Of a stretch of DNA of 64,000 nucleotides, positions 20,866-54,110 are shown in pieces. The notes beneath the pieces are model-generated. The model did not search any database and was not told where the DNA came from. It saw nothing but the letters and a program-made list of their open reading frames with translations. The number at the start of each line of letters is the position of its first letter. Positions within the stretch are counted from its first letter, which is position 1. Location: NCBI GenBank assembly GCA_002189035.1, contig NEEC01000021.1, forward strand, positions 806,001 to 870,000. Direction: 5' to 3'. This DNA is from Utricularia gibba (Eukaryota > Streptophyta > Magnoliopsida > Lamiales > Lentibulariaceae). The position numbers were made by a program, and so were the translations under genes.

Positions 20866-21239
20866 CAGCTCCTCCTTGTTAATGACTGATGGTATCATCT
20901 GGCTTCCCATTGAATTCATCTGATCAGGATGTAGGTGTACATGTGCAACCCTGTAATGTCTTCTGCCTCCCATGAAGAATACACTTTGTATGGTTTTTGT
21001 ATCATTTGGCGCCTGTGATAACTCTTCTTGTACTCTTCACTGGGCAACTCCAGCATAAGTCTGTGGGTGATTGCCGTGCGTGTCCTCCGCGTCCGTACTG
21101 ACACGGGATGTGTCGCAACCCAAACCCAAATACGCCCAGACAAATCCCAAGTAAAAGATACGTGTGTATTAGAAAAAATAACCACTGTATTTTTAGTGTG
21201 TGAGAAAAATGGCTAACTTATGTGTAAAAATCATAAGGT

Positions 21240-21784
21240 TATGGGCACTTATTATGAAAATATTCCAATTGTTATGTATTAAAATTTTGAATTTCTAACG
21301 AACTACAAATTATGTTATCGTTTTTTTAAAATGTAATTCTATTAAAAAGTTTTAATTCTATTAATATAAATAATATATATCATAATTAAAATAAAATATA
21401 TTTTATATGAAATTTACATGATTAAGTTTTACTTAATCAAAATTTAAGATAATTGTGTATAATTATGTAATAAGTTATTAATTGAGAACATGGAGATTAA
21501 ATTATCAAATAAAATATAATATAGAATACATATATTATTTTTCACTTTTCTCAAAAAATGAAATAATTAATAAATAATAAATTATAAATTATCATATTTA
21601 TTATATATGTATATGTAATAATATAATACGAAATAAGATTACATGAATATTTGTAAATAATTGATAAATATTATTGCATTATTGGTGAGAATCTTGAGAA
21701 TAATATTATCATTTTAATATATACATAATAAGATAGTACAAAATATAACAAAATGTGTATTTTTAGAATATTATTTTTTTAAAG
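21240..21784. repeat. AT-rich left flank of inverted-repeat element A
   Basis: This AT-rich stretch downstream of BPM is shared, in the same order, with the left flanks of elements B, C and D (near 25290, 27540 and 31680). Common landmarks are a run reading roughly attaatataaataatat, a taattgtgtataattatgtaataagttatt segment given here only in outline, and an attacatgaatat motif. It ends just before the element A TATA box. It lacks about 150 bp present in B, C and D. Confidence 0.65.
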
Positions 21785-22745
21785 TTGGGCCTCTAAATTG
21801 TATAAAAGGACTCCTCCATGGTACTACAATTTACACGAGTCAAATGTATTGTACACTGCACGCTCTTGGCGCTGGTCACGATGGCCATTTGCTCCAACCT
21901 CGGGAATCACCTTCCAACACTTTCTCCGGTGGGTGGCAGCGTCCATCATGGCAACGGCGACAAGGAGGAGTACGGTGCAGGCATCAGGAAGAAAAGGGCG
22001 ATAGGAACGATAGAGCTGCAAGAAGCTCAGAGGCATGAATTACGTATTTGATGGGCGATTCAATCCATTGAAGCAGAAGCTCCTGGTTTTTAAGGATCAG
22101 CAGGTGAATGAAACACAGAACAATGAAACAGCGCATGGGGGGAGATGGAAAGGGATCCTTGCGTTTGATTTGGTAGCTCACAAACAATACAGAAAGCAGT
22201 ATCAATACTGCGAGATTGAGCCGAGAATCATCCATCTTCTCCACGAGGAGAAGAGAAGACAGGAGGCATTTATCAGAGGATTAGAATCTGTCAATCTTCT
22301 GTGATGAATGCCTGGCTCATTCTTGCACTACTGATACTGCTTCCAGTGTTGTTGGTTAGCTACCAAATCCAAGGTGAAAATCCTTTCCATCTCCTCACCA
22401 TGCGCTTCTTCATTCTTCTGCGTTTTATTCATGTGGTGATCTGTAAAAATCAGTAGCTTCGGCTCCAATGGATCGGATCGTAAATCAAGTACGTAATTCA
22501 GGCGTCGGAGCTTCTTACAGCTCTATATTTCGTATCGCTCTTTCTTCCTAATAGCTGCTCCTTACTCCCCCTTGCTGCCGTTCCCATGATGACTGCCGTC
22601 ACCTGCTGGAGACAAGTATTGGAAGGTGCAACCCGAGGTCGATCAAAATGGCGATCGTCATCAACGCCACGAGTGTGTAATGTGCAATAACATTTCACTC
22701 ATGTAAATTGTAATATCGAGAGCCCTTTTATACAATTTCTATATG
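21785..22745. repeat. Long inverted-repeat element, copy A
   Basis: A TATAAAAGG box at 21801-21809 points right, and its complement CCTTTTATA at about 22724-22732 points left. Between them, two arms of about 450-490 bp are imperfect reverse complements that meet at about 22281-22295 with almost no spacer: AGGCATTTATCAGAGGA on the left faces TCTTCTGTGATGAATGCCT on the right. The left arm has about 40 extra bases near the centre. A transcript from either TATA box would fold into a very long hairpin. The element abuts a copia fragment at about 22750, so its right flank is missing. Read outward from the centre, the left arm (minus, 22244-21984) encodes a hydrophobic ORF. Possible identities are a foldback or MULE-like element with long TIRs, or a hairpin-siRNA locus. 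Confidence 0.75.
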
Positions 22746-22749
22746 CTTC

Positions 22750-24725
22750 CTTTTAGCATGGAAGACCATATTTACTGTGAGATGAAGTGCATTCAAATTG
22801 TCGCAATGTAGTATCGGTGTGCAATTCAGATTGACCTTCAATTCTTTTAGAACAAACTGCAGCCAGATTACCTCTATTACTGTGTGTCATTGCTCTATAT
22901 TCCGCTTCAGTGTTAGATTTTGATACAGTTTGCTGCTTCTTTAAACACCAGGAGATCGAATTTGTACTAAGAAACACACAATATCTAGTGTTCGAGCATC
23001 TTGTGAGAGGGCAACTAGTCTAGTCTGCATCTGAGTACACCTCAAGACATAACTATGAGTCTCGTTAATATAGGAGTTCAAGATTCAATGTCTCTTTGAC
23101 ATAGCGTAAAATCCGATTGGCTTGAATTTAATGGTGTATAGTCGGGTCTTGCATAAACTGTGACACATAATTCATACTGTATGTGATATTTGGTCGTATG
23201 AATGTGAGATATTGTAGGACTCCAACCAATGCCCTGAAAGGTATTGGATCCTTGAGTTTCCTTTCCTCTTGAGTGATTTTGAACTTCAATACTTGTGACA
23301 TCACCACAGACTTGCAATCTTTTAATTCAAATCTGTCCAAAATGAAATGAGCATAGTGAGTTTGTGTTAGATGAAGACCTTGCTTAGAGTATGTCACTTG
23401 CATTCCAAGAAAATAATGCAATGGTCCAAGGTCGTTCATGGCAAATTCAGAGGACAATTTTTCAATGAGGTCATGTATGAGATGGGGAGCTATACATGTG
23501 ACAATGATAATATCAACATAAAGAAACAATACTAATGTTTCATTCCCTATATGAGCCACAAATAGTGAGAGATCAACAAAGGTGTGTGAAAAGCCTAACT
23601 GCAAGATAAACAAGCTAAACTTGCCAAACATGTGTCGAAAAGTTTTTATCTTTCATATATGGTGGTTATTTCATATATATATCTTCTTGAGTTTCACCAT
23701 ACAAAAAGGCATTTTTGATATCAAGTTGTATTATTTCTCAATTGTTGGCAAGTGCAATAGAAACACGAAGTCGGATCATACATGGTTGCACAACAAGTGA
23801 AAATGTGTTTTTGTAATTAATTCCATCAACCTGATTATACCTCTTGGTGATGTGTCTAGCCTTCAAACAATCAAAAGTTGCATCTGGGTTCAGCTTTGTT
23901 TTATAGATCCATTGGCACCTAATCACACGCATTCCCTCAACACATGGAACTAGAGTCCATGTGTTATTTTTTTTAAGTGCATCCATTTCATCATTCATGT
24001 AGCCCTTCCATCCTGGATGATTAAGTTCCTTTCGAAGCGTTCTGGGTTATGATGAAATAGAATAATGTCATTTCACATGGAAAGTATACTTCATATTCGA
24101 TTTGAGGATGCCAACTTGAGACCTTGTTGTCATAGAATGTGTTCTCTATACAGGAATGTCAAATAAGGAGAATGTAAAGACGGACCTAGGGGTGTTTGAT
24201 CAATTGTAGCACCTTGTTCACCTTCCTCAATTTCCACTGTGGCAGGAGAAAGGGAATTGTCATCATGAATGTCATCGTTGTGCATCCTAGCACTTATCTC
24301 CCCTGGATTAGATTCACCTTAAAGAGTGTGACCAGAATCATTTTTGGGCTCTCCAAGGCTAACACAATTCATAACATCACAAGTCTCCCCTGGAGCACTG
24401 TTACTGCCATCGTTGAGCTCTCCTAAATGATGACTACTGTTGTGACCTGTCTCCCTGTGAATTGAGGCCAGGGGTGGGACTTTGCAGTGTACCACTATCG
24501 GTGAGTTTAGGAGCAACAGATAGTGGAGGAACCACAATAGCACCCCTGAAACCAGCGGGTTCAAGGGCTGTCGACATGGGCAGGCTGGGGCCTGGAGATG
24601 CCTCATCGCAAACAGATGGATCCGGGGGAAAGTTTAGAGGTCCAACCGGTTCCGAACCGTACGATTTTGATTCGGAACCGCATGATTTCAGCGAACTGTT
24701 GTTTCCAAAATCACAGGTCACTATG
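22750..24725 (-). mobile_element. Degenerate Ty1/copia retrotransposon fragment (linker, RT, RNase H)
   Basis: Minus-strand reading, broken by stops and frameshifts. 24720-24430 looks like the Ser/Pro-rich integrase-RT linker. 24000-23740 encodes MNDEMDALKKNNTWTLVP and QWIYKTKLNPDATFDCLKAR, the start of copia reverse transcriptase. 23631-23128 carries VLFLYVDIIIV (the YVDD-box position, here degenerate), FAMNDLGPLHYFLGMQV and FRALVGVLQYLTFIRPNITY. 22977-22753 has ISWCLKKQQTVSKSNTEAEYRAM of RNase H. Gag, protease and the integrase core are absent and no LTR is visible. It is a dead fragment joined on its right side to element A. Confidence 0.88.
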
Positions 24726-25200
24726 GACCATGGTTTAGGTTTTTATTTGGTTCAAAATTGGAATTGATAATCTTGAATCAAACCGTAACTTGAACTAATT
24801 TATTACTGTTTAAATGCGTTTCTCAAACACCCACATGAATCATTGGGTGTATCACTATGAAGTTTTAATATTTTTTAATTTTATATGTTTTTATATTAAT
24901 AAATGATATATTTAACAATATTAATTTTCATATTTTACTGGATATATTATATGATATTCTATGTTAATTTATAAAATACATTAATTTAAATTAATTTATA
25001 AAATACTCAAATAAATTATAATCAAAATCAATATAATTTATAATTTAAATAAATAAAATAAATGATAAAATTATCAATAATTGAAAATATATATGATAAA
25101 ATAAAATTGAATTGAATGGACTGATAGATGGACCCGAAGGCAAGGCTTGGGCCTACGACCATAGTTCAAAAACACGAGTAACATCAGTGGGAGGAGATGA
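24726..25200. other. Repeat-block spacer, AT-rich
   Basis: AT-rich DNA from about 24780 to 25120, then a short GC-richer stretch at 25120-25220 with no recognisable gene. I see no repeat shared with the inverted-repeat family here. Confidence 0.4.
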
Positions 25201-26620
25201 GGCGTCAAGCAGTGGTTTAAAAATCATAGGAGATATGTTTTTAATTGGCAATCCATCTAGGTGATTTGAGATTTAAAAGTAATGGAGAAGTTATATTAAT
25301 ATAAATAATATCTATAAAAAATCAATAAAAAAATTATTTATACGAAATTTACACAATTAAGTTTTATTTAATCAGAATTTAAGATAATTGTGTATAATTA
25401 TGTAATAAGTTATTAGTTTGGAACATGGAGATTAAATAATCAAATATATAATATAATATAATATAAATATATTATTTTTCAATTTTCTCAAAAAAATGGG
25501 AGTAAAAAATAATTAATAATTAAGTGAATTATCATATTTATTTTTTTATATGTGTAATAAGATAATACGAAATAAGATTACATGAATATTTTTCAATAAT
25601 TGATGAATATTATTGAATTATTGGTGAGAATCTTCAGAGTAATATTTTCATTTTAATATGTACATAATAAGATAATACAAAATATGACTAAATGTATATT
25701 TTTAGAATATTATTTTTTTAAAGTTGGGCCTCTAAATTGTATAAAAGGACTCTCCATATTACAATTTACATGAGTCAAATGTGTTATACATTGCACGCAC
25801 GTGGCGTTGGTCATGATGACCATTTGCTCCAACCTCGGGAATCACCTTCCAACACTTTCTCCGGTGGGTGGCAGCATCCATCACGGCAATGGCGACAGGG
25901 GGAGTACGGCGCAGGTATCAGGAAGTAAGAGGGAAATGAACGCTAGAGCTGTGAGAAGCTCAGAGGCTTGAATTACGGATTTCATGGGCGATCCAATCCA
26001 TTGAAGCAGAAGCTCCTGGTTTTTAAGGATCAGCAGGTGAACGAAACACAGAACGACGAAGCAGCACATGGGGGGAGATGGAAAGGGATCCTTGCGTCTG
26101 ATTTGGTAGCTCACCAACAACACTGGAAGCAGTATCATTGGTGCGAGGTTGAGCCAAGAATCTTCCATCTTCTCCACAAGGAGAAGAGAAGACTGGAGGT
26201 ATTTATCAGGGGATTAGAATCTCTCAATCTTCTGTGGTGAATACCTGGCTCATTCTCGCACTACTGATACTGCTTCCAGTGTTGCTGGTGAGCTACCAAA
26301 TCTAAGCCGACTATCCTTTCCATCTTCCCCATGCGCTTCTTCATTCTTCTGCTTTTTATTCATGTGGTGATCTGTAAACATCAGGAGCTTCGGCTCCAAT
26401 GGATCGGTTCATCCATCGAGACTGTAATTCAGGCGTCGAATCTTCTCACAGATCTAGCCTTCGTATCGCTCTTTCTTCCTGATAGCTGCTCCTTACTCCC
26501 CCTTGTCGCCGTTTCCATGATGGCCGCCGCCACCTGTTGGAGACGAGTGTGTGATGTGTAGTAACATTTCACTCATGTAAATTGTACCGTTTTTGATGTA
26601 TTTATATATGTGTTGTTAGG
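25200..26620. repeat. Long inverted-repeat element, copy B with left flank
   Basis: The left flank (25240-25725) matches the flanks of C and D. A TATAAAAGG box is at 25740-25748. The arms closely match copy A: left arm about 25740-26215, right arm about 26225-26585, meeting around 26210-26240 (TATTTATCAGGGGATTAG facing TCTTCTGTGGTGAATACCT). The right arm has lost about 50 bp near its outer end and its TATA box, so B is eroded on that side. A hydrophobic ORF starting MEKMEDS (minus, 26177-25881) is the counterpart of the one in copy A, and the right arm carries a related ORF on the plus strand (26331-26561). Confidence 0.72.
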
Positions 26621-26839
26621 AATATATTATATGGTAAAATGTTATGTTATGTATGTAATTGTTGTAAAAATAGGTTAAATTTGCAATAATTGAACTCAAA
26701 AATCTAATGTTTCTTTTTAATGTATTTCTAAATTTTAACAGAATAAAAGTTAATATTAGCATTACATTTTTCGCGTTGATAAGTAAAAAGAACATAAAAA
26801 TTGTGGAAAATTGGTTTTAATGTAAATTAATTGCTTTTT

Positions 26840-27120
26840 AAATATTTTTTTAAAAAATCATATTATAAAAATATTTGTAAATAATTGCTGAATATTGTTT
26901 TTTATATGAATATGATGGTTTAGAATATAATTATCATGTTCATATAACTCAGGCTTTGATTACAATCCCCAAGTTGCTGAATCTAGGATCCAAGGCAAAT
27001 CTAGTTGAGGTTAAGAGACCCCCTCCATCATCGCCAATAAAAGCAACTCTGTGATCTGTAATACTAGTTTTCTGCATCGAACCTCGTATAGTATGCCAAG
27101 AGTTCCTTATGTGTAATTAT
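26840..27120. repeat. Downstream module of element B
   Basis: Starts with the AT-rich right flank (tcatattataaaaatattt and following), then carries a segment containing ctgaatctaggatccaaggc and caactctgtgatctgtaata. Modules in the same order follow elements C (28890-29229) and D (33310-33750). This copy is the most diverged of the three. Confidence 0.6.
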
Positions 27121-27289
27121 GATGTTCCGCCTCATATAAGAGTGGAAGTATTTTAAACGAATTCTACATCGATTATAAATATGAGAGAAAATAAAATAAA
27201 ATAGAATGATCATATAAATCTTACATTAGATTTTTTCTTCAACATAACAAATGACCATTAATAGTAACTCTTAAATTAGACGTGTTTGA

Positions 27290-28890
27290 ACTAAAATAAA
27301 GTGAAGATGGATAATCTTTTGGGAATTTCAAACAAACTGCAAATTATTTCATATTTTTTTAAAATGTAATTCAATTAAAAAGTTTTAATTAAATTATTAT
27401 AATTTATAAAATATATTATTATTTTTTAATAATTCACTACCATCGCAGAACCCTAATAGCGTATTACATATTCATATAACATCGTGTTATACATGTACAT
27501 GGAGATTTTATTTTCATTGGTACTCCATTTTACGTGATTCGAAATTTAAAAATAATAGAGAAATTATATTAATATAAATAATGTATGTTTAAAATTAAGT
27601 AAAATATAATTTATATTAAATTTAAATAATTTTAAGTTTTAACTTAATCAGAATTTAATATAATTGTGTATAATTATGTAATAAGTTATTCGCTCGGAAC
27701 ATGAAAATTAAATCATCAAAAATATAATAAAATATAGAATAAATATATTATTTTTCAATTTTTTAAAAAAAATGGGAGTAAAAAATAATTAACATTTAAG
27801 TGAATTATCATATTTATTATATATATGTGTGTAATAAGATAATACGAAATAAGATTACATGAATATCCGTAAATACTTAACAATTAACTGAATTATCATA
27901 TTTATTATGGTATTATATGAATGTAATGGCGGTGGGAATCTTGGGAATAATATTATCATTTTAATATGTACATAATAAGTTAATACAAAATATGAGTAAA
28001 TGTAGATTTTTATAATATGAATTTTTTTATAAACTGTATAAAAGGACTCCCGGACTGTACAATATACAGTATTCTAATTGTATTATACAATAGACACCCT
28101 TGCAGGCGTTGGTGATGCTGGTGGTTCCACCTCACGTCGTAGGATGGGGCCCATTTTTCTCCATCCCCAGGATACACCAACCAGCACCTGTCTCCAGTGG
28201 GCGGCACCCATCGAACGGCGGCAAGGGGGAGGAAGACCCATGTCTGAGGAAGAAATAGGGTTAGGAAGGACACAGCTCTAACAAGCTCGGAAGGTTATTA
28301 TAATAAACATGGATCATATTACAAAAGATTAGAATCAATCGATTATTATTGAAACCTCCAAGTTTCTTACAGCTCTGTCATTCCTAACACTCTTTCTTCC
28401 TTATACCTCCCCCGTGGCGCCATTTCCATGATGGCTGCCACCGACTGGAGACAAGTGCTGGATGGTGCAGCCCGGGGATGGAGAAAAATGGGCAACATCC
28501 TACGACCACCCGCATCACCAGCGCCTGCAAGAGTGTCTAATGTATAATACAATTAGAATACCGTATACCGTACACTTTAGGGTGTGTTTGGTTTAACGGA
28601 ATGGGATAAAATGGGTTTAGTATACTTGAGTTTAAATAAAGTTGATGTATTGGGATTATTTTTTTAAGTAGTATTCAGTTATTGGAATTAACAATGAGAT
28701 TAAGTGGTTTTAAATAAAAGAAGGGAGGAATGTGGTTTTTAAATAAATCTATATAATTTTAGATTTATTTAAACCTATCAATTAAACACTTTATAATTCA
28801 TAATCCTAATTTTAAACCCATGTAATCCCATAAACCAAATATACTCTTACAGTACATGTCATTTTATACAATTTAGAGGCTCCACTATAA
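27290..28890. repeat. Long inverted-repeat element, copy C with left flank
   Basis: The AT-rich left flank runs 27320-28025 and includes two copies of a taagtgaattatcatatttatt-type unit (outline only). TATAAAAGG is at 28037-28045. The left arm, about 28040-28300, pairs with the right arm, about 28355-28575 plus 28847-28885; the right arm is split by a MITE. Both arms contain a block corresponding to the outer 250 bp of copy D. The centre is shorter than in A, B and D, so the hairpin spans only about 530 bp before the insertion. The right-hand TATA box is degraded to attttatac. Confidence 0.7.
28580..28846. mobile_element. Tourist-like (PIF/Harbinger) MITE inserted in element C
   Basis: 267 bp with terminal inverted repeats GGGTGTGTTTGGTTT and AAACCAAATATACTC (12 of 15 matching as complements), flanked by a TTA target-site duplication at 28577-28579 and 28847-28849. 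A 3-bp TTA/TAA duplication and this terminal sequence are typical of Tourist-type MITEs. No coding capacity. It lies inside the right arm of element C, so it inserted after that hairpin formed. A related copy is at 37471-37736. Confidence 0.8.
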
Positions 28891-29229
28891 AAAAAAAATC
28901 ATATTATAAAATATTTATAAATAAATGCTGAATATTATTTTGTTATGTGAATATGGTGCATTCGGAATGTAATTATCATATTCATATATTAAATGAATAA
29001 TTGTAAATAATTGGTGAATATTATTATTTTCTTTTGCATGAATATGATAGTGGTGCCTATACATCTCTGGTACCTGGGATCCCCGGTTCAGAATGTTGGG
29101 GATCCTGCTCTAGCTCGAGCTCAACTTTCGAGCAGTTCTCTCTCCTCACAAAAATGTCTGATCCAAGGCGAACCTTCTGGAGGTTTCGAGACCCCTCCAT
29201 CATCACCAACAAAGCAACTCTGTGATGTG
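28890..29229. repeat. Downstream module of element C
   Basis: AT-rich right flank, then a segment with cagttctctctcctcacaaa, gatccaaggcgaaccttctg and a run ending caactctgtgatgtgt. It is nearly identical to 33480-33680 downstream of element D. It breaks off at about 29229, where a copia gag fragment begins, whereas D continues with taatactagttttctgcatg. Confidence 0.7.
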
Positions 29230-30531
29230 TTTGCTCCATCATCACAAAACTTCGTACATCTTTTGTGTTTGCTCAAAATTATAGAGTGTGTCCAACAGCT
29301 TCTCATGATTGTAGACAGTGAGCAATCATGTGGCAGACAGCGTTCCGATATATGATCTATAGTGCTTCCCACACACTTGATAACCTTGTCCTTTACATGC
29401 CCATCATCCACTGCCTGACCCAATTTCCTCAGCCGCTTCACCATTGTGTTCACACAAGAGGTTAGATCACCCATGGATTCACCATTTTCTAAAAACAAAT
29501 TGTCCAGTATGTGCCATTGCTTGTCTATCTCTTTCTGCCTCTTTTCTATTGTCATGGCATGATTTTTTATTAGGATATTCCATGCCTTTTTGGGAGATCT
29601 GCACCCTAGGATGAGGTCATATGCTTCATCAACAACTGCCAATGTTAAGGCATGCATTGCTTTCTTTTTCTTCTTTTTGAGCTTCTTGTCAGCCGCACAA
29701 TCTATTTTTGAAGATCATGATTTTTTTTCTTTTGATTGAGCAGTGTCTGCTTGATCTTCTTCACCATGGTCTGCAAATAGGTTCCAAAGATCTAAGTTGT
29801 CCAGATGAACAGACATTTTGACGCCCCAGGCGTCATAGTCCCCTTTTCCATCAAACATAGGAGGAGGTATAAAATAAGGAGCAGAAGCCATTGATCTCAG
29901 AATGAGATAACAAGTTAAGCAACAAAAAAATAAGATAAAAACTGAGCTTGATGCTATTGTGACTTCCCCAGAAGATAATGTGTTCTTCGAAGAAAGAGAT
30001 GCCAAGAACGCGAAGGGTTTTGCGGGTTTCTGTGAACCCAATTTTCCTCCCTCTACATTCAAACTAGTTTTCAGTGTTTATATACATCAATTAATTCGTG
30101 CCCCATTTATTGGGCTAAATACTGTAAGTAAAAGGACCTGTGTAAAATAAATCTTCTCTTCGATCAATCAGCCTTTCTCCTGCATTAGATGCTGGTATCC
30201 AAACTCGATTTGATGGTTCAGGTTAGTATCCCACAGCTGTCACCATGTAAAGAGACATGTAGCTCACAAACTAGGAGCCTTGACATTTTCAAATTGGAGA
30301 AATTTGAATGAAGAAGAACTTAATTTTATTGTGTGTACACTTGTGTATTTATACTACTTGAGTGTGGATAGCCGTTGCACCCAAAGTGACTGTTGTTGAG
30401 CAGGTTACTGTTGCTGGTGACTTGGGCTTCTTCAAGGCTCGGGCTTCATGAGGCCTGACTTCAAGTGGTCTTGTTCGGCCCAAGATTGCCTGTCTTTGTT
30501 TGGCCCAGGATTGCCTCATCACTCATTAACA
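29230..30531 (-). mobile_element. Ty1/copia gag fragment with probable LTR remnant
   Basis: Minus-strand ORFs encode a copia gag start, MASAPYFIPPPMFDGKGDYDAW (from about 29891), then after a break AYDLILGCRSPKKAWNIL and LFLENGESMGDLTSCVNTMVKRL (to about 29340), the UBN2/gag layout. Upstream on the minus strand, 30240-30530 has a TATA-like box, AATAAA and an ACATGGTGACAGC stretch where an LTR end and primer site would be expected; the LTR call is tentative. No protease, integrase or RT. The left end cuts the element C downstream module and the right end abuts a duplicated piece of FKBP20-1. Confidence 0.75.
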
Positions 30532-31036
30532 TGGAACAAGAAATTCTTCAGTAACTTCTGAATGGATGGCTTGAAACGAATTATGCAATTAATCAATGCA
30601 ATATTCATTGAATTGCTAGCTAATATAGTGATAGGTCTTCCTTCTATTCCGCATGGTTAACGTACATTTTCAAGTAAAAGTATCAAGCACAAAACTAGCA
30701 TACCATCAAGGAGAGGAAGGCTCTCCCAAGGAACTTCAGCATCAGGCTTCGCTGCCCACACAATGGTCTTCACGAAGCCTCCATCTCCAGACAAATCAAT
30801 TGGATCACTCATGTTTTCCTCCAAGGATTCAACTGGTGAAAGCAGAAACTCAAACTTGTGAGGTAACTCATGATAAGCATTTCTATAGAATTTTACGAAG
30901 AACAACAATATTCAACGGAATTTTGCAACAAAAGTAGCAAAAATCTGTAAACTTTTCTCTCATCTGCGTTGAGATCAAACCATACACAACAATTTTGGCA
31001 TTTCTTTCTCAAGAAAAAACTTTGTCCGTAGAAAAG
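30532..31036 (-). pseudogene. Duplicated FKBP20-1 exon 1 with flanking introns
   Basis: Very similar to 34631-35115 of the intact FKBP20-1 gene. It includes part of intron 1, a 109-bp exon (30704-30812) of exactly the same length as the real exon 1, and part of the 5' UTR intron. The exon still reads [12 protein letters not shown] with a few substitutions (FVKTIVWAA for VLKTIVRAA). A 15-bp insertion lies at about 30862. Exons 2-5 are missing; the sequence on that side is copia gag. It is a fragment left by tandem duplication. Confidence 0.85.
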
Positions 31037-31039
31037 TAA

Positions 31040-31440
31040 TAAGATGTGAGGGCGCTTTTCGAATTAAGGCTTCTGGATCAGAGTGGGAGGGGGAGGCATA
31101 AGGTTCATGTTGAAACTTAGGATCCAATGAATCAGCGAGTATGCATGTGAAGCCTAAATACATAAGAAACGTGGATCACATTAGAAAAAATTAGGTCCAA
31201 CCGATTACTTTTGATCTGTAGTTTCTTATATACTAGATTATTCCACTTTCATTTTTCGATGTAGGATTGTGTATTCTAACAGTTCATAGCCATGTGGCCG
31301 GACATTAGAAAGCGGACCTTATAGGACAACCCACATACCCTCAGACAAATCCCAAGTAAAACATCAATCATAGGGTTATGCGCACTTATTATGGAAATAC
31401 TCCAGTTGTTGTGTATTAAAATTTTGAATTTCTAACAAAC
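31040..31440 (+). pseudogene. Fragments of BPM exon 1 and BPM 3' flank
   Basis: Bases 31044-31109 match BPM exon 1 (19135-19200) with about one mismatch. After 170-180 bp of other sequence, 31287-31320 matches the next part of that exon (19200-19245). From about 31325 the sequence matches DNA just downstream of BPM (21115-21330: cagacaaatcccaagtaaa, then tattaaaattttgaatttct). The rest of BPM is missing. The intervening piece resembles the centre of inverted-repeat copy C and is bounded by ttcat on both sides, suggesting an insertion. Confidence 0.8.
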
Positions 31441-33345
31441 TACAAATGATTTTATCTCTTTTTAAAATGTCATTCAATTAAAAAGTTTTAATTAAATTAT
31501 TATAATTTATAAAATACCTTATTACAAATGTATATGAATTTTTCATGATTCAAGAAAGTCGCATTACCGTAATAATGTATTATATATTCATGTAACATTG
31601 TGTGATATATGTACACGGAGATTTTATTTTCATTGCAAACCATCATAGGTGATTCGAAACTTAAAAATAATAGAGAAATTATATTAATATAAATAATATA
31701 TATCAAAATTAAATAAAATATAACTTATATGAAATTTACTTGATTAAGTTTTACTTAATCAGAATTTAAGATAATTGTATATAATTTTGTAATAAGATAT
31801 TAGTTCGAAACATGGAGATTAAATAATCAAAAATAAAATCTAATATAGAATAAATATATTATTTTTCAATTTTCTCAAAAAATGGGAGTAATAATTAATT
31901 AACAATTAAGTGAATTATCATATTTATTATAAATATGTGTAATAAGATTACATGAATATCTGTAAATAATTAACAATTAAGTGAATTATCATATTTATTA
32001 TAAATATGTGTAATCAGATTGCATGAATATATGTAAAGACTTAACAATTAAGTGAATTATCATATTTATTATATATATGTGTAATAGTATAATACAAAAT
32101 AAGATTACATGAATATCTGTAAAGTGAATTATAATATTTATTAAAGATATTATATGAATGTAATGACGGTGGGAATCTTGGGAATAATATTATCATTTTA
32201 ATATATACATAATAAGTTAATACAAAATATGAGTAAATGCATATTTTTATAATATGATTTTTTTTACAGTGGGACTTCTAAATTGTATAAAAGGGCTCGT
32301 GTACTATACAATATACGGTATTCTAATTATACGTGCATTATACAATGGAGACTCTTGCCGGAGTTGTTGATGCGGGTGGATCCACCTCCGGTCGCAGTAT
32401 GCTGCCCATTTTTCTCCGTCCCCGGGAAACACCATCGACCACCTGTCTCCAGTGGGTGGCACCCATTATGGGAACGGCGCCAAGGGGGAGGAAGCCCCAT
32501 GCACGAGGAAGAAATAGAGCTACTAAAGTCATAACTATAAGAAGCTCGGAGGCTTCAAATAGAAATTCAATGGATGCTCCGATCCATTGACGAAGGGTCT
32601 CCTGGTGTTTAAGTATCACCAGGTGAAAGAAAGAGAGCGCGATGAACCAGCGCATGGTGGGGAGTTGGAGGGGATCCTTCCCTTGGATCTCGTAGCTCAA
32701 TGATAATATGGGAAGCAAAATCGTATGGATCCAAGCATCTTCCATCTTCTCGACAAGGAAAAGAGAAAACTGGAGTTGTTTGTTGGTTGCGATCAAGTGC
32801 CATGAGGTAATTTATAAGAGTAGCGTAGCCTTTCGTGCAATCTCTCAATCTTCTATGGTGAATACTTGGAGTTGGAGCGCAATCTCGTTCTAGGGATTCT
32901 GTGTGTGTCGGGTAGAATGCTAGTGATCTCCCGAATCCAAAAGCATGGATATTCTCTTGGTTCCCATAGCACGCCGCTTTGTCCGTGCGGTGATCCTTAA
33001 ACATGGATCGGAGCATCCATTGAATTTCTATTTGAAGCCTCCGAGCTTCTTATAGTTATGACCTGAGTAACTCTATTTCTTCCTCGTGCATGGGGCTTCC
33101 TCCCCCTTGGCGCCGTTCCCATAATGGGTGCCACCCACTGGAGACAGGTGGTCGATGGTGTATCCCGGGGATGGAGAAAAATGGGCAGCATACTGCGACC
33201 GGAGGTGGATCCACCCGCATCACAAACGCCGGCAAGGGTCTCCATTGTATAATACACGTATAATTAGAATACCGTATAATGTACAGTACAGGAGTCCTTT
33301 TATACAATTTAGAAGCCCCACTGTAAAAAAATCATATTATAAAAA
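31440..33345. repeat. Long inverted-repeat element, copy D with flanks
   Basis: The left flank is 31440-32265. TATAAAAGG is at 32286-32294 and the inverted box CCTTTTATA at 33296-33304. The outer arms (about 32265-32595 and 33003-33335) are reverse complements with only about ten differences over 250 bp. The complementarity extends past the TATA boxes into cagtggg(a/g)cttctaaattg and the adjacent AT-rich DNA. The inner part (32600-33000) resembles the inner arms of A and B but pairs poorly. This is the best-preserved copy. The ORFs at 32333-32590 (+) and 33257-32997 (-) are mirror images of each other and are not called as genes. Confidence 0.78.
31901..32115. repeat. 71-bp tandem repeat, about three copies
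   Basis: Units begin with aacaattaag at 31901, 31972 and 32043, a period of 71 bp. They sit in the left flank of element D. Element C has about two related units at the same place. Confidence 0.75.
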
Positions 33346-33399
33346 TATTTGTAAATAATTGCTGAATATTATTTTTTATATGAATATGATGCATCCAGA

Positions 33400-33780: not shown

Positions 33781-33928
33781 GTGTATTTTGCTACCCAATA
33801 GTGTGCCTCTTTCAAACAAAGGGAGAAAGAGATTGATTTATGGTTTTAATTTTCAAACAAGAACTGTACTACAAAATACATGCAAGGTCTGGTTTAACAG
33901 GCACCTTATTTGATGGTGGTATTATGCA

Positions 33929-34917
33929 TCATTTTGCTTTACCTTTTCCCTTTCCTTGGCCTTTCTTGGCATCAAGTTTGGCTTGCATCCTTGCTGCAGC
34001 AGCTGCTTTGGCTTCTTCTCTTTTTTTCTTTTCTTCCTCCTTCAATGCCGCAGCAGCTTCTCTCTGCTTCTTCAGCTCCCTGAAAATGTTTGAAAGATAG
34101 CAATGCAGCTACATAAAAAGAAGGGCATTGTCTTGCAAATTCTGTAAGGGAATCATGCCATAAACTTACTCCAACCGAGCCTTCTCAATGTTAACACTGT
34201 TCACTGTAGATCCTTTCCGTGGCCGGCAGGCAATCAGCTCTATCTCGAAAACAAGGGTTGAACTGCATCAACAATTACTCAATCACATTCTGCTCTTTTG
34301 TCAACCTTCAGAAGTGGACCAGAGCAGTTTGAAATTTACTTGGGTGGAATCTCCGGTGGAGAACCTGCACTGCCATAGCCATATTCCGGCTTACACGTAA
34401 TCGTTGCGACCTCACCAACCTGAGAACATGTGCATATAAGGAAGATGCATAAACAAAAAAGGATGAGGGTAAGCAATAACCTAACCTTCATTGTCCTCAG
34501 GGCAATGTCCCAGGCTTGTATGACTGATCCCTTGCCCAGTTCAAAGGTGAAGATACTGTTATCCTCTTTGGTAGAATCAAAGACCTCTCCAGTCTCAGCA
34601 AGAATGCCTTCATAATGAACTATGGATACCAAACAATGGAACAAGAAATCATTCAGTAACTTCTGAATGGATGGCTTGAAACGAATTATGCAATTAATCA
34701 ATGAAATATTCATTGAATTGATAGCTAATATAGTGATAGGTCTTCCTCCTATTCCTCATGGTTAACGTAAATTTTCAAGTAAAAGTATCAAGCAAAAAAC
34801 TAGCATACCATCAAGAAGTGGAAGGCTATCTGTTGGAACTTCGGCATCAGGCTTCGCTGCCCGGACAATGGTCTTCAAGACACCTCCATCTCCAGACAAA
34901 TCAATTGGATCACTCAT
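33929..34917 (-). CDS. FKBP20-1: Peptidyl-prolyl isomerase FKBP20-1
   Basis: Five minus-strand coding exons: 34809-34917, 34486-34619, 34340-34419, 34170-34262 and 33929-34079, total 188 residues. The start [19 protein letters not shown] is characteristic of plant FKBP20-1. The FKBP domain follows ([20 protein letters not shown] ... [42 protein letters not shown]), then a charged coiled-coil tail ([28 protein letters not shown]) ending in GKGKGKAK. Length and tail match the Arabidopsis protein, a nuclear immunophilin. A 5' UTR intron is likely, with donor at 35428 and acceptor at about 34938. Site-II motifs lie upstream. The gene is the intact member of a duplication; a partial copy is at 30532-31036. 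Confidence 0.95.
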
Positions 34918-35506
34918 GTTTTCCTCCAAGGATTCAACTGGTGAACGCAGAAACTCAAACTTGTAGGCATTTCTATAGAATTTTACGAAGAACAACAATA
35001 TTCAACGGAATTTTGCAACAAAAGTAGCAAAAATCTGTAAACTTTTCTCTCAACGGCTTTGAGATCAAACTATACACAACAATTTTGGCATTTCTTTCTC
35101 AAGAAAAACTTTGGCCGCATAAAAGTAATAAGAACTGGCTTCACCTTTGAAGTAACACTTGCTTGCAAAAAGAATGGAACCTATGGATTAGAAGATCAAA
35201 GCTGATCAGATAGTGCAGAGCAAGTGCTGCATTAGTGCCACTCCAGCTTAGGGTTCAATCATACGCGAGAATCTTTCATCAACAATAGATGCAAATGAAC
35301 CAGCAGATAGAGTATCACCACAAACCCACAAACAGCATCCAATTCAAAGCTTGAGGACAATCATCAATGGCAATAATGGACCGAAAACAGCCGAAATCAA
35401 CGATCAACATTTTTCCAAGCTTACTTACCATGCAGCAGTGGAAACCCTAGACGGAACGGGGACGGTGAACAAGGAAACTTCAGTGAGAAGTATCTGGAAC
35501 AATCAT

Positions 35507-52389: not shown

Positions 52390-54110
52390 TGTAGCAAAAC
52401 CATGAAACAAGAGAGCAGTGCATGCAGAGAAAGCATGCTGCCTTTTTAGTTTCAAAGAGACTACTGCAAACACAATACAGGGATGGATGGCTACCAAGAG
52501 CAAGATAATGTAGGTGTAGAAAAACCGTCAACACTATGAATGCTGGAATTGGCGAAATACGAGATGACAATTTCAATCCTCCTAGATATGTTAAAGTCTC
52601 ACTCCTACTTAATCCAGGCATGGGGCAGGCTGCTACTTGCATGGGAAGAGTTAAAAACCGTGTATTCTAATCTACTCTAAAGCAATCCCAGTCTAAGAAC
52701 TCAGCCCCACCCTAAAACCAACAGTCATGGACACAACATAATGCCTTCTGATTTCAAATAGAATACTGAAAGCACAAAACAGGGATTGCTACCAGACACA
52801 AGATATGACCTAGTAGCATCAGAGTAGAAGATGCCTACCCAAATCATCAAAATACAAGACAACAAATTACACCCTCTTAGATAAGACAAGTTCTCCCTCC
52901 TCCTTAACCCAGGCTTGGGACTGGCTGTGCTGTTTAGCACAGGCGGAGTTAAAAACTTTGTATTCTAATCTACACTACAACAATCCTAGCTGATTACTTA
53001 ACCCCACTCACAACAAGTAACTTATCCTACAAGGAGCCGTACACCATAATAGCTTACACAATAAATTACCTAAATGGGTAGGCAAGCCAGCGTTGCGATA
53101 GATGATAGAGGATGGCTGCCAAGCCTTGCAGACATTATCGATCACGAGAGTGATACCTGCTGCGATGAAAATCCCCCTTTTTTTATAAATAGCGATCGGA
53201 TTCGATCGCGGGGAAGGCTGGCAATATTTGTTTTTTTTTAGACTATTTTTTTCTGGCTCTTTTTTTTCTGGAGTCTTTTTTTCTTTTGTTGGGCCTCTTT
53301 GTCCTTTTGTTGGGCTCTTTTTTTCTTTTTTGGCCTCTTTTTTTATTTTGTTGGGCCTCTTTTTTCTTTTTTTGGGCTTTTTTTCTTTTTTTTCTTTTTT
53401 TAGCCTCTTTTTTTGGCCTATTTTTTTTTTCCTTTTTTTTGGCCTCTTTTTTGATGAATGGAGGAGCGTGGTAATCGCAACGACGATGGCGCCTTTCCTG
53501 GAGATGGAACCAAGAGGAAGAAGAATAATTAGACCGGGAAATTGATGAATCATTTGCAAAAACAAGCAACACATTTTGAATTCATTCCAGAAGTATGAAA
53601 AAGAAATCGAATCCTAGACATCGAAAACTGCAAAACTCAAATCATTCAAGCTATTTCAGAAATAAAGCAAGAGAAACTAGAAGATTGATTAATCTGTTCG
53701 ATTTTCAAAACATTGACGACAACAAAAAACGTCACGAAACAGAAATCCAACACAAGAATTGGGACAAACAAAAGATAAAACATCAAGAAATAAAACCACA
53801 CACCGAAAGGCGTAGGGGAAACATAACACAAAAACAAAACGAAGAAAGGAAAAAAAACGAGAACGAACCAAAATCAAATGAATACAAGAACGAAATGAAC
53901 TACACGATTATCGAAAGGAAAGAACAGCATTGAAAAGAAAAGAAATCATAACGGAGAGACGAAACCAACCTGATCGCTATCCCGATACCCTTTCTCAAGA
54001 AAAAAACTCTACAGATCCTACAAAAGCAAAATGCCCTAGACTAAAATTCTCTAAACCTACATTCACAAACTGAGAAACGCTGCGCATATTCGGCTCTATA
54101 TATAGTTTTC
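52390..54110 (-). repeat. Unknown duplicated locus, left copy (minus orientation)
   Basis: Reverse-complement counterpart of 58830-60260. On the minus strand it starts with a TATATATAG box (54097-54105), then a T-rich stretch of about 500 bp resembling an intron, then a splice-acceptor-like ccatctccag followed by GAAAGGCGCCATC (from about 53502). A polypurine tract comes next (53450-53228), then a conserved block (ggggattttcatcgcagcag ... ggcttgcctacccatttagg). Last come two tandem units of about 300 bp, each with cccaagcctgggtta-type sequence followed by GGAGGAGGG or its variant. The second unit (52690-52390) is more diverged. ORFs encode KKRGIFIAAGITLVIDNVC and a Lys-rich segment, but I recognise no family. 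It may be a noncoding transcript, a small gene or a retro-derived element. Confidence 0.6.
53228..53455 (-). repeat. Polypurine tract with GAGGCC units (minus strand)
   Basis: Nearly all-purine on the minus strand, built from irregular AAAAAAGAGGCC-type units. It sits at the same place in the left duplicated locus as the tract at 59467-59705 in the right copy. It gives Lys/Arg-rich ORFs in every frame, so the ORFs are not evidence of coding. Confidence 0.8.

What the first reader, a model, noticed from the sequence alone, without database searches (positions are those of the whole stretch)
21785..33345. Family of four long-hairpin elements with inward-facing TATA boxes
Copies A (21785-22745), B (25725-26620), C (28025-28885) and D (32265-33335) each consist of two long reverse-complementary arms that nearly meet. 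Each has a TATAAAAGG box at the left outer end; A and D also have an inverted box at the right end. The arms are GC-richer than their AT-rich flanks, which are shared too. Transcription from either end would give a hairpin RNA of 0.5-1 kb. This fits either a foldback/MULE-like transposon with promoters in its terminal repeats or a locus of hairpin-derived siRNA that could seed new miRNA genes. I recognise no named family.
Basis: partly seen in the sequence, partly recalled or inferred. Interest (0 to 1): 0.75.

Follow-up and report, generated by a model that had tools for sequence, protein, structure and literature searches.

The report
Hairpin loci built from duplicated genes
A small plant genome, almost certainly the bladderwort Utricularia gibba, carries a set of long hairpin-forming loci made of back-to-back copies of genes from one small membrane-protein family and placed behind the same promoter-like sequence, an arrangement expected to make small RNAs that silence that gene family, although no RNA data were available to test this.

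Summary
The four hairpins are real: arm identity is 80-96%, self-complementarity scores 357-600 bits against at most 37 in shuffles, and predicted RNA folds reach -311 to -648 kcal/mol. They are not a transposon family. Each arm holds a copy of a gene for a small hydrophobic protein, arranged head to head. D-left keeps an intact 135-codon ORF; the other arms are broken or cut. The family has about 15 other open members in the 100-Mb genome and matches nothing in Pfam. The array grew by tandem duplication, and the inverted duplication is older than the A/B split.

All seven exact genome-wide 16-mer matches belong to this set. Every module that keeps a TATA box is followed by antisense or inverted pieces of the same gene family. 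The two C451 hairpins come from other subfamilies and share many near-perfect 21-mers with intact genes; A-D share none with intact paralogues elsewhere.

Best reading: promoter-driven hairpin siRNA (proto-miRNA) loci whose payload has changed more than once. Transcription, small RNAs and silencing are untested, and a G:U test found no selection on RNA pairing.

The parts
21229..21800 (+). A: AT-rich upstream module (15% GC), promoter-like
   Evidence: shared with B, C, D, C255, C2 and C451 loci
21795..22738 (+). A: hairpin unit; TATAAAAGG at 21801, inverted box at right end
   Evidence: 82% arm identity, MFE -518 kcal/mol
21987..22230 (-). A left arm: broken membrane-protein gene copy
   Evidence: tblastn to D ORF, 2 stops
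22304..22687 (+). A right arm: broken membrane-protein gene copy
   Evidence: tblastn to D ORF, 2 stops
25229..25739 (+). B: upstream promoter-like module
25734..26586 (+). B: hairpin unit; TATAAAAGG at 25740, right end lost
   Evidence: 80% arm identity, MFE -475
27323..28036 (+). C: upstream promoter-like module
28027..28900 (+). C: hairpin unit, 5' half of the gene deleted; TATAAAAGG at 28037; right outer end split by a MITE
   Evidence: 85% arm identity, MFE -311 without the MITE
28580..28846 (.). Tourist-like MITE inside C's right end, TSD TTA
   Evidence: terminal inverted repeat and TTA on both sides read directly
31366..32285 (+). D: upstream promoter-like module with about 70-bp tandem repeats
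32241..33348 (+). D: hairpin unit; TATAAAAGG at 32286, inverted box at 33296-33304
   Evidence: 96% arm identity over 347 nt, MFE -648
32338..32745 (-). D left arm: intact 135-aa ORF plus stop codon
   Evidence: open frame; paralogues elsewhere
33001..33249 (+). D right arm: inverted copy of the ORF's 3' part, one TGA
   Evidence: 94% aa identity to D left

Best explanation
A-D, with three or four relatives elsewhere in the genome, are hairpin-RNA loci. A TATA-bearing AT-rich module is inferred to start Pol II transcription at the outer end and run through one arm, the loop and the inverted second arm. The RNA folds into a 0.25-0.45-kb near-perfect duplex, which Dicer-like enzymes (DCL4/DCL2, or DCL1 as a stem decays) would cut into about 21-nt RNAs. 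These would act against mRNAs of the family the arms came from, a multi-copy family of small hydrophobic proteins. SHOWN: arms are inverted gene copies; the upstream module is shared by all loci; payloads differ between loci but stay within the family; the C451 hairpins contain 21-mers nearly identical to intact genes. INFERRED: promoter activity, transcription, dicing and silencing. For A-D the only well-matched intact ORF found is D's own left arm, so they may be relics whose target was lost, or may act on that ORF.
For: Arms encode the family and D-left is an intact ORF. Family members elsewhere: C1:3435507, C2:823/829/986 kb, C4:3182 kb, a C451 cluster at 2492-2537 kb, C1:6663 kb. The upstream module recurs at C255:2006 kb, C2:875 kb, C451:2485 kb and C451:2481 kb, and all 7 exact 16-mer TATA matches in 100 Mb are in this set. 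At C451:2485 a 282/289-nt IR, 90% identical and 93% when gapped, starts 87 nt after the TATA; at C451:2481 a 93-nt stem, 96% identical, starts right after it. Between the two C451 modules, identity is 90-95% for 180 bp up to the TATA and about 50% after it. 21-mers with 3 mismatches or fewer: C451:2485 hairpin against gene C451:2529 80/207; C451:2481 hairpin against gene C451:2537 118/160; at least 6 mismatches in shuffles. U. gibba is reported to have DCL1, DCL2, DCL4, two RDR6, a truncated DCL3 and a reduced share of 24-nt RNAs (PMC8333044).
Against: No RNA evidence: small-RNA reads could not be mapped here. G:U against A:C differences between arms are 52 against 58, so there is no sign of selection on RNA pairing or of a preferred strand. 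A and D arms have no 21-mer within 4 mismatches of the five intact paralogues compared. C255 and C2 keep one arm only. A/B upstream and arm divergence are alike (about 92%), so the module is not clearly more constrained there. Hairpin loci can be inert.
Confidence: 0.55

Rival explanations
1. Inert decaying inverted duplicates: the family makes inverted copies by template switching or unequal exchange, the shared upstream module travelled with them as ordinary flanking DNA, and nothing is transcribed to purpose.
For: Stops and deletions in seven of eight arms; no G:U excess; dN/dS between arms mostly 0.4-0.9, i.e. relaxed; no trans target found for A-D; single-arm remnants at C255 and C2.
Against: The module ends at the TATA box with different payloads behind it, and every TATA-bearing copy has a payload from one gene family; simple flank drag does not predict that.
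Confidence: 0.32
2. Foldback or Mutator-like transposon (or Pack-MULE) with promoters in its terminal repeats, which captured family gene fragments.
For: Inverted ends with TATA boxes in A, C and D; the upstream module is found at dispersed sites.
Against: No target-site duplication at the repeat ends; the hairpins themselves occur only as one tandem array that duplicates its flanks and an FKBP gene; module limits differ from place to place; the C451 loci lack the mirrored right end; payload always from one family.
Confidence: 0.08
3. D-left is an ordinary protein-coding gene and the inverted copies are incidental duplicates without RNA function.
For: 135-codon open frame with paralogues kept open elsewhere.
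Against: The frame has only a roughly 100-bp loop and the other arm upstream of it; sibling arms are broken; D arms are homogenised, so the frame could be open by chance.
Confidence: 0.05

Closest known systems
MIRNA genes born by inverted duplication of target genes (Arabidopsis MIR161/MIR163; Populus MIR1444 from PPO genes, PMC5223194)
   Same: Arms are extended inverted copies of members of a protein-coding family; young loci keep long similarity to targets; local tandem expansion.
   Different: Here a common upstream module recurs in front of hairpins made from different subfamilies, and stems are much longer than a typical MIRNA. Orientation is head to head in A-D, whereas MIR163/MIR1444 are described as tail to tail. 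No mature miRNA is known.
Taxon-specific inverted-duplication siRNA loci of Lamiales: Antirrhinum SULF and Mimulus YUP (reviewed in PMC12371187)
   Same: Lineage-specific loci from incomplete or inverted duplication of coding genes, in the same plant order.
   Different: Those are loci with known small RNAs and phenotypes; here there is a multi-locus set against one family, with no expression data.
Drosophila simulans hpRNA loci Nmy and Tmy that silence the Dox gene family (PMC10292708)
   Same: More than one young hairpin locus facing members of one gene family, with different preferred targets.
   Different: Animal endo-siRNA pathway with proven meiotic-drive targets; nothing is known of drive here, and a promoter-module link of this sort was not looked for there.
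Mutator-like / foldback transposons
   Same: Long terminal inverted repeats whose ends carry promoter motifs.
   Different: No TSD, no fixed element limits, arms are host genes, amplification by tandem duplication.

Membership tests
MIRNA/siRNA hairpin locus from inverted gene duplication | Arms are inverted copies of a protein-coding gene family | tested here: met
   Arms encode paralogues of genes at C1, C2, C4, C451
MIRNA/siRNA hairpin locus from inverted gene duplication | Single-strand transcript predicted to fold into an extended stem | tested here: met
   MFE -226 to -648 kcal/mol for six hairpins; self-complementarity far above shuffles for A-D
MIRNA/siRNA hairpin locus from inverted gene duplication | Near-perfect 21-mer complementarity to intact family genes | tested here: inconclusive
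   Met for both C451 hairpins; for A and D only the D-left ORF matches, no intact gene elsewhere
MIRNA/siRNA hairpin locus from inverted gene duplication | Selection for RNA pairing (excess of G:U over A:C between arms) | tested here: not met
   52 G:U against 58 A:C, p = 0.63
MIRNA/siRNA hairpin locus from inverted gene duplication | 20-24-nt RNAs produced; for a MIRNA, precise miRNA/miRNA* pair | not testable with these tools
   No read data in session; public libraries named in PMC8333044
Described Rfam microRNA family | Match to a curated covariance model | tested here: not met
   Only a twister-P1 ribozyme found in the window, outside the interval
Mutator-like or foldback transposon | 8-11-bp target-site duplication at the ends | tested here: not met
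   Sequences outside the IR ends of A, C, D do not match at the borders
Mutator-like or foldback transposon | Dispersed copies with the same ends | tested here: not met
   Hairpin DNA matches only the local array; module limits vary elsewhere
Mutator-like or foldback transposon | Transposase-bearing relative | not tested
   No such gene was searched for genome-wide

The most novel reading that the evidence does not exclude
A promoter module acts as a reusable launch site for hairpin RNAs: behind it, inverted fragments of different subfamilies of one lineage-specific membrane-protein family have been installed more than once (one hairpin, at C451:2485, is a chimera of an old C2/C255-type outer arm and a new C451-subfamily inner arm), so the plant repeatedly retargets RNA silencing against a gene family that keeps expanding, as hpRNA suppressors do against selfish genes in flies.
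Probability: 0.25. Interest if true: 0.85.

Novelty: new variant of a known kind. Interest (0 to 1): 0.6.

Why it matters
How new miRNA and hairpin-siRNA genes obtain both a promoter and a target is an open question; the inverted-duplication model explains the target but not the promoter. Here a single upstream module sits in front of hairpins made from several subfamilies of one gene family, at different stages (near-perfect, decayed, single-armed), in one compact 100-Mb genome for which small-RNA libraries are already public. That makes the question directly testable, and asks why this unnamed membrane-protein family would be targeted repeatedly.

Tried and rejected
Transposon reading: looked for TSDs, fixed ends and dispersed hairpin copies; none found. 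Rfam match to a known miRNA or other structured RNA: none in the interval. Selection on RNA pairing through G:U excess: none. Protein identity: no Pfam match above cut-off and no solved relative. The published U. gibba miRNA list lies in supplements that could not be opened. No structure prediction was run: a small hydrophobic protein without an external alignment would say little.

Full report
SETTING. The window is C321:806001-870000 of a 100.09-Mb assembly in 516 contigs. Contig sizes (a 6.8-Mb contig, total near 100 Mb) fit the PacBio assembly of Utricularia gibba, for which a 6.8-Mb unitig and a genome size of about 82-100 Mb are reported (PMC8333044; PMC10663240). The species name is an inference, not shown.

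OBSERVATION. The four inverted repeats are real and at the stated places. Gapped arm identity is 82, 80, 85 and 96% for A, B, C and D. Self-complementarity scores are 357-600 bits against at most 37 bits in 50 shuffles each. Single-strand folds give -518, -475, -311 (C without its MITE) and -648 kcal/mol. TATAAAAGG starts at 21801, 25740, 28037 and 32286. The right ends of A and D carry the inverted box; C has a one-mismatch box and B has lost it. Upstream flanks are 15-19% GC and hairpins 46-48%.

THE ARMS ARE GENES. The D left arm holds, on the minus strand, an intact 135-codon frame for a small hydrophobic protein (32745 down to 32341, then the stop codon). The other arms hold copies of the same gene in inverted, head-to-head order, broken by stops, frameshifts or deletions. 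In A the two copies are separated by only about 70 bp. The protein matches no Pfam family above cut-off and no solved structure. A protein search finds relatives elsewhere in the genome as open frames: C1:3435507 (40% identity to D), C2:823 and 829 kb, C4:3182 kb and C451:2537 kb. A second subfamily lies at C451:2492-2530 kb, C1:6663 kb and C2:986 kb. An alignment shows shared features along the whole length.

HISTORY OF THE ARRAY. Left arms of A and B are 90% identical and right arms 89%, but left against right is 74%. The inverted duplication therefore came first and A and B are later tandem copies. D's two arms are 93-96% identical while C and D arms are about 80%, so D's arms were homogenised recently. 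The array copies its flanks too, including an FKBP gene fragment (30531-31018 and 34636-35108). This is segmental tandem duplication, not transposition. Hairpin DNA of A or D finds no other good copies in the genome, and the sequences just outside the repeat ends show no target-site duplication.

THE SHARED UPSTREAM MODULE. The AT-rich upstream flank of D recurs at C255:2006 and 2008 kb, C2:875 kb, C451:2485 kb and C451:2481 kb; C177 is a 98% duplicate contig of the C451 region. All seven exact matches to TAAATTGTATAAAAGG in 100 Mb lie in this set. Behind every module that keeps a TATA-type box there is a piece of the same gene family: hairpins A-D; a single antisense arm at C255:2006 and at C2:875; a 282/289-nt hairpin at C451:2485 starting 87 nt after the TATA; and a 93-nt stem at C451:2481 formed between an inverted 3' piece and the neighbouring family gene. 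The second C255 module (2008 kb) has no TATA box and no payload was found. Between the two C451 modules, identity is 90-95% over 180 bp up to the TATA and about 50% beyond it, so the same module stands before different payloads. The C451:2485 hairpin is a chimera. Its inner part (6249-6621 of L042) is 82% identical to gene C451:2529. Its outer part matches the C2 and C255 arms (74% over 108 nt; 86% over 36 nt) and the leader matches C2 (80% over 40 nt).

POSSIBLE TARGETS. Counting 21-mers with at most 3 mismatches, the C451:2485 hairpin matches genes C451:2529, C451:2521 and C1:6663 in 80, 48 and 56 of 207 positions, and the C451:2481 hairpin matches C451:2537 in 118 of 160; shuffled copies of those genes never come closer than 6 mismatches. 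A and D arms have none against the five intact paralogues compared; only the D-left frame matches. So the C451 hairpins have clear potential targets, and A-D act on the D frame, act on something not seen, or are relics.

TESTS THAT DID NOT SUPPORT FUNCTION. If pairing of the RNA were selected, transitions between arms should favour G:U over A:C on the transcribed strand. The counts are 52 and 58. dN/dS between arms is mostly 0.4-0.9, which points to relaxed coding constraint. The promoter role rests on a TATA box and on shared sequence only; between A and B the module is no better conserved than the arms, while between C and D it is (roughly 93% against 80%), but gene conversion in D may explain that.

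MECHANISM. The most likely course is Pol II transcription from the module through the inverted copies, folding, cutting by DCL4/DCL2 (or DCL1) into about 21-nt RNAs, and silencing of family mRNAs. U. gibba is reported to have DCL1, DCL2, DCL4 and two RDR6 genes, a truncated DCL3 and a reduced share of 24-nt RNAs (PMC8333044), so the 21/22-nt route is available. Everything after the DNA anatomy is inference.

COMPARISON. The kind is known: MIRNA genes from inverted duplication of their targets (MIR163 and MIR1444, PMC5223194), and the taxon-specific SULF and YUP loci in the same order, Lamiales (PMC12371187). The closest functional analogue for several hairpins facing one gene family is Nmy/Tmy against Dox in flies (PMC10292708). 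What I did not find described in the library searched is one upstream module standing before hairpins from several subfamilies of one family, with a chimeric hairpin joining old and new payload. I therefore call it a new variant of a known kind; the literature search was limited to open-licence papers and a few queries.

Noticed in passing
window 28580-28846: Tourist-like MITE (GGGTGTGTTTGGTTT...AAACCAAATATACTC, TSD TTA) inserted in the right outer arm of C.
   Followed up: partly
window 22756-24046 (-) and 29151-29714 (-): Copia remnants: RVT_2 between A and B, and a copia-type gag (Retrotran_gag_2) between C and D.
   Followed up: partly
window 30531-31018 and 33850-35110 (-): FKBP-type isomerase gene and a duplicated fragment of it, part of the same segmental duplication.
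   Followed up: partly
window 52891-52955 (-): Type-P1 twister ribozyme, just above the Rfam gathering score (68.8 against 67.2).
   Followed up: no
window 31893-32150; L041:1691-2071: About 70-bp tandem repeats within the upstream module; copies in C2 are 98% alike, so they expand and contract.
   Followed up: no
L042 (C451:2479500-2488500) and L043 (C177): Duplicate contig pair, probably two haplotypes: the C451:2485 promoter, left arm and loop are 100% identical, the right arm 97% with gaps.
   Followed up: partly
window 26587-26850: B's right end is replaced by about 260 bp of AT-rich DNA not seen in the other copies.
   Followed up: no
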